Shown: positions 4,004-38,857 of the stretch, one piece after another | How the letters are laid out: every line of letters begins with the position of its first letter | Position numbering within the stretch: the stretch's first letter is position 1 | Source: Acidimicrobiales bacterium | GTDB lineage: Bacteria; Actinomycetota; Acidimicrobiia; Acidimicrobiales; GCA-2861595 | Direction of reading: 5' to 3' | DNA length: 40,047 nucleotides | Assembly (NCBI GenBank): GCA_035540975.1 | Contig: DATLFN010000063.1 | Span: 1-40,047 of the forward strand | Notes under the pieces: model-generated | The model's database searches: none | What the model was told of the DNA's origin: nothing | The model's input: the letters and a program-made list of their open reading frames with translations, nothing else | Position numbers and translations under genes: made by a program

Positions 4004-5165
4004 AGGGCCCGGCGGACACCGTGCCGCCCCGCACGGCCCCGAGGACGCTGCGGAGCTCGTCGGACGTCACCGCGTAGGCGGTACCGCTCTTGTCGGGGGC
4101 GATGGCGAAGGCGACGCCGATGACGTCGCCCGTGCTGTTGACCAGCGCCGCGCCGGAGTCCCCCGGCTGGAGGGCCGCCGCCAGGATGAACACGTCGCGC
4201 CGCGTGGACCGGGTGTCGTAGAGGTCGCGCCCGACCGCCTGCACCCGCTGGCGGACCGCAGCGGGGGCGATGCGTAGCTGGTCCTGGCCGTTGGGATGGC
4301 CGAACACGGCACCGGTGTCGCCGACGGCGCCCTCCCCCACCCCGAGGGCGGCCTGGTCCAGCCCCGGCACGCGGAGCACGGCCAGGTCGCGGCCGGGGTC
4401 GAAGGCGACCACGGTGGCGTCGAAGCGGCGGCCGTCGGGGCGGCGGACCTCGGTGCGCCCCGGCTGCTGCCCCGCCACCACGTGGGCGTTGGTGACGACC
4501 ACGTCGGGCGCCACCGAGAAGCCGCTCCCCTCCTGGGTCCGGGAGCAGGCGACGCCCGACACCTTCACGGTCGACCGCGCCACCCGCTGGAGAACCGGTG
4601 CCGGGATGCCGGTCGACTCGGGAGGCGGGCCCGTGTCGGGGGCCGGCCGGAGTGACTCGAAGACCTTGGGGAAGTTGGTGTCGCCCACCACCCGCCGGAG
4701 CGCCTGGAGGGTGTCGGGTGGGCGGGGCAGGGTGCCGTCGATGAAGCGGGCGACCGCCGAGTTGCGGGCCTGGCGGGAGACGGACCCGGGAACGTCGGCG
4801 ATGGCCGGGAGCAGGATCCACACCGACACCAGGACGCCCAGCACGCCGACGGCGGCCCCGACGGCGCTGTCCAGCACCCGGATGGGGCCGAGGGGCACGA
4901 ACCGGCGGAGCGACGAGCCGGCCAGGAGGCCGAGGCCCTGGCCGACGAACGCCCCTCCGAGCAGGACCACGCCGGCCACCAGCAGCCTGCTGGTGGGGTC
5001 GGGCCCCTCGAACGTCCGCACCGCCGTGGGCAGGAACCGGGCGGCGAGGATGAGCCCCGCCGCCAGCCCGACCCACGACACGACGCGGGCGAGGAACCCG
5101 AGCCGGAACCCGCCCGCCGCCGCCGCCACCATCGCGACCACGATGATCAGGTCGAACAGGTTCAC
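3987..5165 (-). CDS. MarP-like membrane-anchored serine protease
   Basis: A 392-aa protein with four hydrophobic N-terminal segments (about residues 4-22, 28-46, 60-80, 96-120; CvpA-like domain) and a periplasmic trypsin-like domain from about 190. The triad is visible: H228 in TNAHVV, D260 in DPGRDLAVL, S337 in QPGDSGAAL. C207 and C388 match in position the regulatory disulfide pair of mycobacterial MarP (Rv3671c), which maintains intrabacterial pH under acid and oxidative stress. Length matches MarP (397 aa). The GTG start at 5165 has TAGCCT 10 nt upstream on the minus strand; this lies exactly at the left edge of repeat copy 1, which separates the gene from trmI. Confidence 0.9.
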   Translation of the reverse strand: MNLFDLIIVVAMVAAAAGGFRLGFLARVVSWVGLAAGLILAARFLPTAVRTFEGPDPTSRLLVAGVVLLGGAFVGQGLGLLAGSSLRRFVPLGPIRVLDSAVGAAVGVLGVLVSVWILLPAIADVPGSVSRQARNSAVARFIDGTLPRPPDTLQALRRVVGDTNFPKVFESLRPAPDTGPPPESTGIPAPVLQRVARSTVKVSGVACSRTQEGSGFSVAPDVVVTNAHVVAGQQPGRTEVRRPDGRRFDATVVAFDPGRDLAVLRVPGLDQAALGVGEGAVGDTGAVFGHPNGQDQLRIAPAAVRQRVQAVGRDLYDTRSTRRDVFILAAALQPGDSGAALVNSTGDVIGVAFAIAPDKSGTAYAVTSDELRSVLGAVRGGTVSAGPCLTSG

Positions 5166-36122: not shown

Positions 36123-36614
36123 TCAGTCCCCCACGAACGAGGCGTCGTCGACCGCCACCCGGCCGATGGCCGAGCGGGCACGGGCGGCGCTCAGGGGCAC
36201 GAACTCGGCGGTCGCCTCCACGCACGGCCGGCCGGCGGGGTCCGCCACGGTGGCCGACAGGGCCAGGCTGCCGTCGCCGTTGCGCCCGGCCAGCCGTGCC
36301 TCCACCCGGTACGGGCGGCCGATCCTGACCGGTCGCCGGAACCGGGCGCTGGTGGACCGGGTGACGGCGAAGCGGCCGGCCAGGGCGATGGCGGCCCAGG
36401 CCATCGCCTCGTCGAGCACGGCCAGGGTGACGCCGCCGTGGACGTACCTGGGCGTTCCCGAGAAGCGGTCGTCGAGCGTGAGGTCGGCGATCACCGTCCC
36501 GGCCTCGTCGTCGGCGAAGAACGCCAGCCGCAGCCCGGACCGGTTCGCCGGGTCGCACACGAAGCAGCGCGACTCGAACCCCCACGTGCGGTTGTCGAGG
36601 CGGCGCAGCGTCAC
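36123..36614 (-). CDS. PaaI-type hotdog thioesterase
   Basis: A 163-aa hotdog-fold acyl-CoA thioesterase. CFVCDPANRSGLRLAFFAD is the common N-terminal motif of the PaaI-like group, followed by the active-site helix YVHGGVTLAVLDEAMAWAA (HGG then acidic residue) and ARFRRPVRIGRPYRVEARL. Substrate unknown. The GTG overlaps the stop of the upstream transporter gene as GTGA, so it is in an operon with that transporter and RNase D. Confidence 0.9.
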   Translation of the reverse strand: MTLRRLDNRTWGFESRCFVCDPANRSGLRLAFFADDEAGTVIADLTLDDRFSGTPRYVHGGVTLAVLDEAMAWAAIALAGRFAVTRSTSARFRRPVRIGRPYRVEARLAGRNGDGSLALSATVADPAGRPCVEATAEFVPLSAARARSAIGRVAVDDASFVGD

Positions 36615-37765
36615 GTCGCCGAACCGTAGCGGGGGACGACCGCCGCCTCCGGCCCCGGGCGCAGCTCGAGGTACACGGCCTTGGCCGCCCCCACCAGGGG
36701 AACGGCGAGCAGGGCCCCCACGACCCCGCCGGCGGACACCCCGACCAGGGCCGCCGTCATGGTGGCGGGAGGCGAGAGCTTGACCGCCTGCCCGACCAGC
36801 AGGGGGCTGAGCACGTTGTTCTCGAGCTGCAGGTACACGACGAAGAAGGCGGCGCACGCCAGTCCCGTCCCCAGCCCCTGGGTGAACCCGAGGAGCACGA
36901 AGGGGATGCCGCCGGCGGCGCCGCCGATCTGCGGCACCAGGTTCCACACCGTCACCCAGGCGGCGGCCAGGGGGGTGAGGGGCACGCCCAGCAGCAGGCC
37001 GGCGACGAGCACGGACACGCCGGCGACCCCGGCCACGAGCAGCGACCCGGCCACGTACTTCCCGACGACGGCGTACGCCAGCGACGCCGCCCGCTCCGCC
37101 CGGGGGCGGACGTCGGCCGGGAGGAGCCGGCGGGCACCCCGGAGGAGGCGATCGCCGTCGACGAGGAGGGTCACGGCGAACAGGGCGGTCACCATGCCGG
37201 CGAGCAGCATGTCGGCCGCCGACCGGGCCGCGTCCTCCAGGGGGGACGTGTCCCCGGCCAGGCGATCCGGGAGGTCCCGGATGGCCTGCTCGACGCGTTC
37301 GGGTACGCCGGCCTCGGCCAGGTCGTCGCCCACCACCGGCAGCTCGGCCAGCTCGGCGACCACCGAGGGCAGCTCGTCGCCCAGGTCACGCGCCTGGCGC
37401 ACGGCGGGCGGCACGAGCAACAGGCCGAGGAGGACGACCACCGACGCGGCGACGGCCAGCACCGCCGCCACCGCCGGCGCCCGGCCGATGCGGAGCCGCC
37501 GGCGGACGTTCTCGACGAGCGGGTTCAGGCCGAGCGACAGGATGGCGGCCACCCCCAGGGCGGCCATGGTGCGCGGCGCCGAGCCGATCAGCGCGGTGGC
37601 GGCCACCAGGACCACGAAGCCGCCGAGGACGACCGCCACCGACCGCCAGTCCAGCTCCACCACCCGCACCGCCGGGCCCGTGGGGCCGGGGGTGGGAGTG
37701 GCCGCCGGAGGGGCCGCCCGTCGCCCCGGTGGGAGGGGTGCGGGCAGGTCGTCCGCCGGGGCCAT
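36611..37765 (-). CDS. AI-2E family transporter (PerM/YdiK type)
   Basis: A 384-aa membrane protein of the AI-2E/UPF0118 family: a Pro-rich cytoplasmic N-terminus (1-38), about eight transmembrane helices, a long amphipathic loop (about 115-195) and the conserved second half LLLGVPLTPLAAAWVTVWNLVPQIGG with ENNVLSPLLVGQAVKLSP. Members export varied substrates or act in Na+/H+ exchange; the AI-2E name does not prove autoinducer transport. ATG 37765, zero-to-three-nt leader from a symmetrical divergent promoter. First gene of the operon with thioesterase and RNase D. Confidence 0.9.
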   Translation of the reverse strand: MAPADDLPAPLPPGRRAAPPAATPTPGPTGPAVRVVELDWRSVAVVLGGFVVLVAATALIGSAPRTMAALGVAAILSLGLNPLVENVRRRLRIGRAPAVAAVLAVAASVVVLLGLLLVPPAVRQARDLGDELPSVVAELAELPVVGDDLAEAGVPERVEQAIRDLPDRLAGDTSPLEDAARSAADMLLAGMVTALFAVTLLVDGDRLLRGARRLLPADVRPRAERAASLAYAVVGKYVAGSLLVAGVAGVSVLVAGLLLGVPLTPLAAAWVTVWNLVPQIGGAAGGIPFVLLGFTQGLGTGLACAAFFVVYLQLENNVLSPLLVGQAVKLSPPATMTAALVGVSAGGVVGALLAVPLVGAAKAVYLELRPGPEAAVVPRYGSAT

Positions 37766-37787
37766 GTCGCCGGTACTGTACCGGCGA
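37766..37787. promoter_or_regulatory. Palindromic bidirectional leaderless promoter
   Basis: Only 21 nt separate the two divergent ATGs, and they consist of the perfect palindrome TCGCCGGTAC-T-GTACCGGCGA (10-bp arms). The centre reads TACTGT (37774-37779) on the plus strand and TACAGT (37780-37775) on the minus strand, both fitting TANNNT -10 boxes about 7-9 nt before each ATG. One sequence can thus serve as promoter in both directions and as a dimeric repressor site. Confidence 0.7.
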
Positions 37788-38857
37788 TGGCGGCGCCGGG
37801 AGCGACCGAGCGGCTCCGCCTCACGCCCCGCTCGGCCCTGGCCGCCGTCGCCATGTTCGGCCTCACGTTGGGCTTCCTGGCCATGTTCGCGGCGTCCCGG
37901 CGCGTCCTGGGGTGGGTGGTGGCTGCCGCCACCATCGCCGGTGTCGTCCACCCCCTCGTCGCCCGCCTGGCTCGCCGCCTGCCCCGGGGCGTGGCCGTCG
38001 CCCTGGTCGCCCTGGCCGCCCTGGCGTCGGTCGGGCTGGTCGGGTGGCGGACGGTGGACGACGTGGGCGACCAGACCGATCGGCTGCGCCGCGCCGCCCC
38101 GGAGGCGGCCCGGCGGGTCGAGGCGGGTGACGGGCGGGTGGCCGAGCTGGCGCGCGAGGCCGAGCTCTCCGAGCGCACCGAGCGCTTCGTGGAAGAGGTG
38201 CCCGAGCGGCTGCGGGGAGGCACGCCGGCCCAGGCCCTGCGGGCGGCGGCCACCCGGGGCGTCGCCTACCTCGCCACCTTCGTCCTGTCCGTGTTCCTGC
38301 TGCTCCACGGCCCCGACCTGGCCGCCGCCGCTGCCCGCCAGGTGCACGACCCCGAGCGGCGCGCCCTGCTGGAGCGGGTCGCCGCCGCCGCCTTCCACCG
38401 CGGCTTCACCTACGTGCGGGGGACGATCGCCATGGCGCTGGCCGCCGGTGGCGTCGCCTACGCGATAGCCGAGGCGGCCGGCGTACCCGCCCCGGCGCCG
38501 CTGGCGCTGTGGGTCGCCCTCTGGGACGTCGTCCCCTATCTCGGCGCGGTGATCGGGGCCGTGCCCATCGTGCTGCTGGGCGGCATCGGCGACCCGGGAC
38601 GGGGGCTGGTCCTGGCCCTGGCCTTCGTCGCCTACGAGGTGGCGGAGACCCTTCTCGTGCAACGCCGGCTCGAGCGCCGGGCGGTGCGGCTGGGCCCGTT
38701 CCTCACCGTCGCCGGCGCCTTCGCCGGCCTCGAGCTGTACGGGTTGGGCGGCGCCCTGCTGGCCATCGTCGTCCTGGCCGTCGGGGTGGCCGCCCTCGCC
38801 GAGCTGGCGCCTGCAGAGCTCGAACCGACCGATCCGGTGCGCTCGCCCGCCGCCTAA
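37787..38857 (+). CDS. AI-2E family transporter, divergent paralogue
   Basis: A 356-aa membrane protein of the same AI-2E/UPF0118 family, about eight helices. Family features: two N-terminal helices, a central amphipathic region (about 95-145), FVLSVFLLLHGPDLA, and LWVALWDVVPYLGAVIGAVPIVLLGGI. It is clearly diverged from its neighbour across the palindromic promoter: ENN-x-LSP is replaced by VAYEVAETLLVQRRLERRAV. The two may form a functional pair. ATG start, leaderless. Its TAA overlaps the opposing flavin-reductase stop (CTAA). Confidence 0.88.
   Translation: MAAPGATERLRLTPRSALAAVAMFGLTLGFLAMFAASRRVLGWVVAAATIAGVVHPLVARLARRLPRGVAVALVALAALASVGLVGWRTVDDVGDQTDRLRRAAPEAARRVEAGDGRVAELAREAELSERTERFVEEVPERLRGGTPAQALRAAATRGVAYLATFVLSVFLLLHGPDLAAAAARQVHDPERRALLERVAAAAFHRGFTYVRGTIAMALAAGGVAYAIAEAAGVPAPAPLALWVALWDVVPYLGAVIGAVPIVLLGGIGDPGRGLVLALAFVAYEVAETLLVQRRLERRAVRLGPFLTVAGAFAGLELYGLGGALLAIVVLAVGVAALAELAPAELEPTDPVRSPAA

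What the first reader, a model, noticed from the sequence alone, without database searches (positions are those of the whole stretch)
37763..37789. 21-nt palindrome serving two divergent leaderless transporter genes
Both start codons abut the perfect palindrome TCGCCGGTAC-T-GTACCGGCGA. Its centre is TANNNT on both strands (TACTGT/TACAGT), correctly spaced from each ATG. One -10 region would fire in both directions, and the symmetric arms could bind a dimeric repressor that shuts both genes at once. The two genes are diverged paralogues (AI-2E family), so they may be expressed in a fixed ratio.
Basis: partly seen in the sequence, partly recalled or inferred. Interest (0 to 1): 0.58.

Follow-up and report, generated by a model that had tools for sequence, protein, structure and literature searches.

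The report
One promoter box firing both ways
Two related transporter genes that point away from each other appear to share one 7-base promoter box, so tightly packed that both messages would start at or next to their first codon; this box, but not the longer palindrome around it, is kept in the related bacteria.

Summary
Window 37767-37787 is a perfect 21-nt palindrome between two divergent start codons (- ATG 37765-37763, + ATG 37787-37789), and both genes are AI-2E family (PF01594). What evolution keeps is the 7-bp core TANNNTA (37774-37780), not the palindrome. The core is present in 27 of 27 orthologous pairs with readable upstream sequence (26, one from another order); none of 91 fourfold-degenerate columns is as conserved. 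Full-length arms occur in only 2 of 26.

TANNNTA is two overlapping -10 boxes, the 18-bp geometry published for bacterial bidirectional promoters. In this genome TANNNT 6-9 nt before ATG or GTG is the leaderless signal. In a 985-kb sample TANNNTA occurs 15 times, and 4 lie between divergent coding starts, against 1 of 516 for other spacings. Seven of 8 whole-genome sites flank divergent coding frames, including valS/cysS and menB/menE.

So the shared-box reading is well supported in silico. The dimeric-repressor idea is not supported, and a fixed ratio is untested. No transcript was measured. It is a deeply conserved new example of a known mechanism, joined to leaderless translation.

The parts
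37774..37780 (.). Shared core TACTGTA (TANNNTA): + strand -10 at 37774-37779 (TACTGT), - strand -10 at 37780-37775 (TACAGT)
   Evidence: Invariant T A and T A in 26 of 26 orthologous pairs; 0 of 91 fourfold columns as conserved
37767..37787 (.). Perfect 21-nt palindrome around the core; arms not conserved as such
   Evidence: full arms in 2 of 26 orthologues
37787..38857 (+). AI-2E family gene, 356 aa, predicted leaderless (start codon 7 nt after the -10)
   Evidence: PF01594 E 7.4e-32; orthologues aligned from residue 1
36611..37765 (-). Diverged AI-2E paralogue, 384 aa, predicted leaderless or with a 1-3 nt leader (start codon 9 nt after the -10)
   Evidence: PF01594 E 1.2e-51; orthologue head to head in 26 of 26 loci

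Best explanation
The 21-bp gap between the two AI-2E genes is a minimal bidirectional leaderless promoter. One 7-bp element, TANNNTA, holds two -10 hexamers (TANNNT) overlapping by five bases on opposite strands, so that -7T of one promoter pairs with -11A of the other. RNA polymerase with the housekeeping sigma factor binds in one of two orientations, melts the same few base pairs and starts about 7-10 nt away, at the start codon or 1-3 nt before it, so each mRNA has essentially no leader. Two polymerases cannot sit there at once, so firing in the two directions is mutually exclusive at any moment. Shown here: the sequence anatomy, conservation of the core, the genome-wide leaderless signal, recurrence at other divergent pairs of the genome. 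Inferred: the actual start sites, the sigma factor, two-way activity, mutual exclusion. The palindromic arms are best read as GC-rich flanks and similar start contexts of two back-to-back copies of one signal, which happen to match perfectly in this species.
For: Core TANNNTA between the start codons in 26 of 26 orthologous pairs plus one from another order; no fourfold column as conserved, 0 of 91. TANNNT 6-9 nt before ATG (44) and GTG (50) against about 1 per position background, not before TTG or CTG. 4 of 15 TANNNTA between coding starts against 1 of 516 for other spacings. 7 of 8 whole-genome sites with coding frames both ways. valS/cysS shares a TANNNTA in 16 of 26 loci with divergent valS. 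Base after the hexamer is A in 26 of 26 here but in 8 of 123 generic leaderless promoters. Almost no SD-like sequence.
Against: No transcript data. Samples of three relatives gave no TANNNTA between coding starts (0 of 3, 0 of 7, 0 of 8), and raw motif counts in 148 genomes do not exceed wrong-spacing controls. No -35 element was recognised (0 promoter-like sites), though -35 is not part of the leaderless signal scored here. The - spacing (9 nt) is at the long end.
Confidence: 0.82

Rival explanations
1. The palindrome is an operator: a dimeric regulator binds CGGTAC-N-GTACCG over the shared -10 and shuts or tunes both genes together.
For: Perfect symmetry in the window; the first flanking pair agrees in 21 of 26 orthologues, above shuffled partners (16.8, p 0.007); C at -3 and G at +4 are conserved in 24 of 26, more than the promoter core needs.
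Against: Full arms in 2 of 26, pairs 2-8 not above shuffles, centre asymmetric in 9 of 26; conserved columns lack equally conserved mirrors; unique in the genome. A single-target regulator would not recur, so uniqueness alone does not exclude it.
Confidence: 0.1
2. Only one direction fires from the box; the other gene is read from a promoter further away inside its neighbour, and the shared core is kept for the one direction.
For: No start site is known. E. coli bidirectional promoters can be strongly biased (general knowledge).
Against: One direction would not need both outer T/A bases: A after the hexamer is 8 of 123 at generic leaderless promoters but 26 of 26 here. No SD-like sequence on the + side and in only 2 of 26 on the - side, as a longer leader would need. 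The start spacing fits the leaderless range on both sides.
Confidence: 0.06
3. The inverted repeat acts in RNA as a hairpin (terminator-like insulator or start-codon mask).
For: Strong predicted hairpin in the window (-21.4 kcal/mol, z -4.0) and mean z -2.1 over 26 orthologues.
Against: Facing start codons (CAT..ATG) and TA..TA are complementary by necessity, which inflates z. Six of 26 orthologues have z above -0.6. A leaderless message would not contain the hairpin. No terminator-like site.
Confidence: 0.02

Closest known systems
Bacterial bidirectional promoters with a symmetric -10 element (Warman, Grainger and colleagues; first part of PMC10268837 read, first part and passages of PMC12825309 read; the 2021 founding paper is not held and is known only through these)
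   Same: Overlapping -10 elements with -7T and -11A reciprocally paired, the 18-bp start-site geometry; a second, 23-bp geometry also occurs in this genome as ANNNTANNNT (the equation of this motif with 23 bp is my own counting).
   Different: Here both directions read protein genes with essentially no leader, the whole promoter fits in 21 bp between start codons, the middle bases are free (TANNNT, not TATAAT), and the pair is kept across a bacterial class. Activity not shown.
Leaderless genes with TANNNT about 12 bp before the start (PMC3160421, PMC12340547, passages read)
   Same: Same motif, same spacing, high-GC actinobacterial genome.
   Different: Those papers treat one gene per motif; the passages seen do not discuss divergent pairs ('divergent' and 'bidirectional' do not occur in PMC12340547, and 'divergent' does not occur in PMC3160421).
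AI-2E family transporters (PF01594)
   Same: Both proteins pass the Pfam cut-off.
   Different: No NCBIfam model reaches its cut-off, so substrate and role are unknown; the family name does not show AI-2 transport.

Membership tests
Bidirectional promoter with symmetric -10 | One -10 readable on both strands, -7T of one opposite -11A of the other | tested here: met
   Sequence 37774-37780; 27 of 27 pairs
Bidirectional promoter with symmetric -10 | Transcription start sites mapped on both strands, about 18 bp apart | not testable with these tools
   No transcript data. Start codons are 22 bp apart in the window and 17-23 in 26 pairs, 20 in 16 of them, which fits starts 0-3 nt before the codons.
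Bidirectional promoter with symmetric -10 | RNA made in both directions in vitro | not testable with these tools
   Needs an experiment
Leaderless TANNNT gene | TANNNT at the genome's leaderless distance from the start | tested here: met
   7 and 9 nt; genome range 6-9
Leaderless TANNNT gene | No Shine-Dalgarno sequence | tested here: met
   SD-like 4-mers on the + side in 0 of 26, on the - side in 2 of 26, neither in the window
Leaderless TANNNT gene | Transcript begins at the start codon | not testable with these tools
   No transcript data
Operator of a dimeric regulator | Symmetric half-sites conserved in orthologues | tested here: not met
   Full arms 2 of 26; asymmetric column conservation
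Operator of a dimeric regulator | Recurrence at other targets in the genome | tested here: not met
   Unique at up to 3 mismatches; inner 13-mer once exactly
Operator of a dimeric regulator | Regulator gene kept next to the pair | not tested
   Direct neighbours in the window are a 4HBT thioesterase and a flavin reductase; wider neighbourhoods were not surveyed
AI-2E family (PF01594) | Match above Pfam gathering score | tested here: met
   111.2 and 176.3 bits against cut-off 34.3

The most novel reading that the evidence does not exclude
The head-to-head pair with one indivisible -10 is selected for as such. Two ancient AI-2E paralogues have been locked to one mutually exclusive promoter since before the class diversified, because orientation choice by RNA polymerase, not a regulator, sets their joint output and noise. 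The same compact device (two predicted leaderless mRNAs, one 7- or 10-bp box, about 20-26 bp between start codons) would then be a standing gene-pair architecture of high-GC members of this class, used also for valS/cysS and menB/menE.
Probability: 0.25. Interest if true: 0.62.

Novelty: new member of a known kind. Interest (0 to 1): 0.42.

Why it matters
[quoted passage not shown] Here both directions read protein genes, leaders are essentially absent, and the shared box is kept in every orthologous pair examined. That makes it a clean natural case for asking whether two-way firing is selected, and whether orientation competition sets the ratio and noise of two gene products. It also suggests a simple annotation rule for high-GC actinobacterial genomes: TANNNTA (or ANNNTANNNT) between facing starts marks a shared promoter and helps to fix both start codons.

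Tried and rejected
Operator reading: tested by genome-wide recurrence, arm conservation with partner shuffles and column conservation against fourfold sites. Not supported, though the first flanking pair and columns -3 and +4 leave a small remainder.

Hairpin reading: folded 35 nt round the core in 26 orthologues. The mean z of -2.1 is inflated because facing start codons are complementary by necessity; 6 of 26 have z above -0.6; set aside.

Relic of the inverted gene duplication: the two proteins are only about 35% identical and form two clades with support 100/100 each, so a neutral palindrome would have decayed; only the core remains.

Motif census over 148 genomes of the order against wrong-spacing patterns: raw counts are driven by base composition and show no order-wide excess of the right spacing. 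I rely instead on counts checked for coding frames, where only the own genome gave a significant excess for TANNNTA; three relatives gave 0 of 3, 0 of 7 and 0 of 8. The built-in control of the genome search (pattern read backwards) is uninformative here, because ATNNNAT is about 7 times commoner than TANNNTA (112 against 15).

Full report
WHAT IS THERE. Between the - strand ATG (37765-37763) and the + strand ATG (37787-37789) lie 21 bases. The palindrome TCGCCGGTAC-T-GTACCGGCGA occupies 37767-37787, so its last base is the A of the + ATG. It has no second copy in the genome within three mismatches. The flanking frames, 356 and 384 aa, both match PF01594 AI-2E_transport (E 7.4e-32 and 1.2e-51). 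They share about 35% identity over 206 residues. No NCBIfam model reaches its cut-off, so the transported substance is unknown. A 21-nt perfect palindrome is only mildly rare in this genome of 73.5% G+C: 17 in a 985-kb sample, two of them in the window.

THE CORE. The centre is TACTGTA (37774-37780). TANNNTA reads as TANNNT-A on either strand, so it carries two -10 hexamers overlapping by five bases. The + hexamer ends 7 nt before its ATG; the - hexamer ends 9 nt before its ATG.

LEADERLESS GENES IN THIS GENOME. In 61 stretches (985,149 bases, about 29% of the genome, 895 candidate coding frames selected by codon-position G+C), TANNNT is found 6-9 nt before the first ATG in 44 cases against a background of 0.9 per position, and before the first GTG in 50 cases against 1.4 per position. 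TTG and CTG, used as controls, show none of this, nor does a permuted hexamer TNNNAT. The same ATG and GTG enrichment appears in samples of three relatives. So the spacing at the pair is that of the genome's ordinary leaderless promoters.

CONSERVATION. A search of 397 genomes of the same order gave 23 with an orthologue of the + protein at E 1e-60 or better, the own genome included; one locus starts inside the gene and cannot be used. In all 26 usable loci the orthologue of the - protein lies head to head upstream (46-73% identity, apart from the window itself), and a TANNNTA sits between the two start codons, 6-10 nt from the + start and 4-9 nt from the - start. A 27th locus, from another order of the class (31% identity), has TAGGTTA in the same place. 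Of 396 genomes across the phylum only 3 passed E 1e-45, two of the own order and one of the same class, so the + gene looks largely restricted to this class. A tree of 62 proteins puts + and - proteins in two clades, each with support 100/100, apart from other AI-2E proteins of the family. The pair is therefore old.

WHAT IS CONSERVED AND WHAT IS NOT. Four positions, T A and T A, are invariant in 26 of 26. Of 91 fourfold-degenerate columns in the two genes none is as conserved; the highest is 0.88. The middle three bases vary (CTG, TCG, CCG, ACG, CGC, CGG). The full arms (seven further pairs) are perfect in only 2 of 26, the window and G001. The first flanking pair agrees in 21 of 26, above shuffled partners (16.8, p 0.007); pairs 2 to 8 do not exceed shuffles. 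Two single columns, C at -3 and G at +4, are conserved at 24 of 26 without equal conservation of their mirror positions. This is the picture of a two-way -10 box, not of a symmetric operator. At 123 generic leaderless promoters the base after the hexamer is A in 8; here it is A in 26 of 26, as the reverse box demands.

RECURRENCE. In the 985-kb sample TANNNTA occurs 15 times. Four of these lie between start codons that open coding frames both ways; for all other spacings of two TA steps (k = 0-2, 4-8) the figure is 1 of 516 (Fisher p 2e-6). Over the whole genome 8 sites fit the pattern, and 7 of them have coding-like frames of 60 aa or more both ways: VIT1 family with rlmN, cysS with valS, menE-like with menB, an epimerase-family gene with an 85-aa frame, a CoA-disulfide-reductase-like gene with a 65-aa frame, a DinB-like gene with a metallo-beta-lactamase-fold gene, and the AI-2E pair. 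The menE-like and CoA-disulfide-reductase-like genes are below their NCBIfam cut-offs, valS was scanned as a fragment cut by the locus end, and the two short frames were not scanned. valS/cysS is conserved too: 94 of 99 genomes had a cysS match and the best 30 loci were fetched; of these, 26 have a divergent valS within the fetched upstream, and 16 of the 26 share a TANNNTA while 10 do not; 1 more has the core at a contig end, and 3 have no valS upstream. A second geometry, two hexamers sharing only a TA step (ANNNTANNNT), is also present: 4 of 29 between coding starts against 0 of 103 for the control ANNNATNNNT, and 4 of 28 against 0 of 35 in relative G033, but 0 of 8 and 0 of 15 in G018 and G045.

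RESULTS THAT DO NOT FIT NEATLY. Samples of 0.30-0.37 Mb from three relatives gave no TANNNTA between coding starts (0 of 3, 0 of 7, 0 of 8). Over 148 genomes of the order, raw counts of the motif between facing start codons do not exceed wrong-spacing controls; base composition dominates. The device is thus shown as recurrent in the own genome and conserved at two gene pairs, not as an order-wide excess.

HOW IT MOST LIKELY WORKS. RNA polymerase binds the same box in one of two orientations and starts 7-10 nt away, at the start codon or 1-3 nt before it; both messages are leaderless. The geometry is that described for bidirectional promoters, in which -7T and -11A are reciprocally paired and start sites lie 18 bp apart (PMC10268837, first part read; PMC12825309, first part and passages read). 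The latter reports that opposing polymerases cannot bind together, that basal activity is too low for interference, and that strong activation one way can repress the other. By that precedent a fixed ratio is not expected if either side is activated. All of this is inference for the present pair: no transcript was seen.

NOVELTY. Both ingredients are known: symmetric -10 elements, and TANNNT leaderless genes (PMC3160421 and PMC12340547, passages read). Three word searches that combined leaderless with bidirectional promoter(s) listed no paper that by its title joins them for a bacterial gene pair, the two-term search, gave 4 papers. Only titles and the beginnings of abstracts were seen, subscription journals are largely missing, and the 2021 founding paper (recalled, cited in the papers read) is not held. 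I therefore file it as a new member of a known kind, notable for depth of conservation and compactness.

Noticed in passing
G000:C29:14195-14220 (L128, L165) and L166-L192: valS and cysS head to head with a shared TTACCGTA-type box, kept in 16 of 26 loci with divergent valS; where the genes have drifted apart the shared box is gone.
   Followed up: partly
G000:C60:5689-5714 (L130, L113:5700): menB and a menE-like gene share a TACCCTA box with nearly the same arms as the window site (CGCCGGTA-CCC-TACCGGCG).
   Followed up: partly
L045:3488, L085:6370, L096:6837, L112:2587; L221, L226, L229, L235 in relative G033: Second two-way geometry ANNNTANNNT (hexamers sharing one TA step) between divergent coding starts: 4 of 29 against 0 of 103 control in the own genome, 4 of 28 against 0 of 35 in G033.
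   Followed up: partly
985-kb sample of the own genome: TANNNTA is rarer (15) than two TA steps at other spacings that are not codon-phased (24-35 for k = 0, 2, 5, 6, 8), as if avoided except at promoters.
   Followed up: no
window 4976-4996, 9716, 5243, 23814: Other perfect inverted repeats with 10-bp arms and 0-4 nt centre in the window.
   Followed up: no
window + 12526, 26923, 31141, 11750, 14273: Further TANNNT sites 6-7 nt before ATG or GTG of long frames, likely ordinary one-way leaderless genes.
   Followed up: no
L023 (G059:C302): The orthologue of the + gene has a TAG inside the matched stretch, a broken gene or an assembly error.
   Followed up: no
L121 (JAVEEC010000056.1): A record titled Frankiaceae carries the pair and falls among the sequences of this class in the tree; the label may be wrong.
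   Followed up: no
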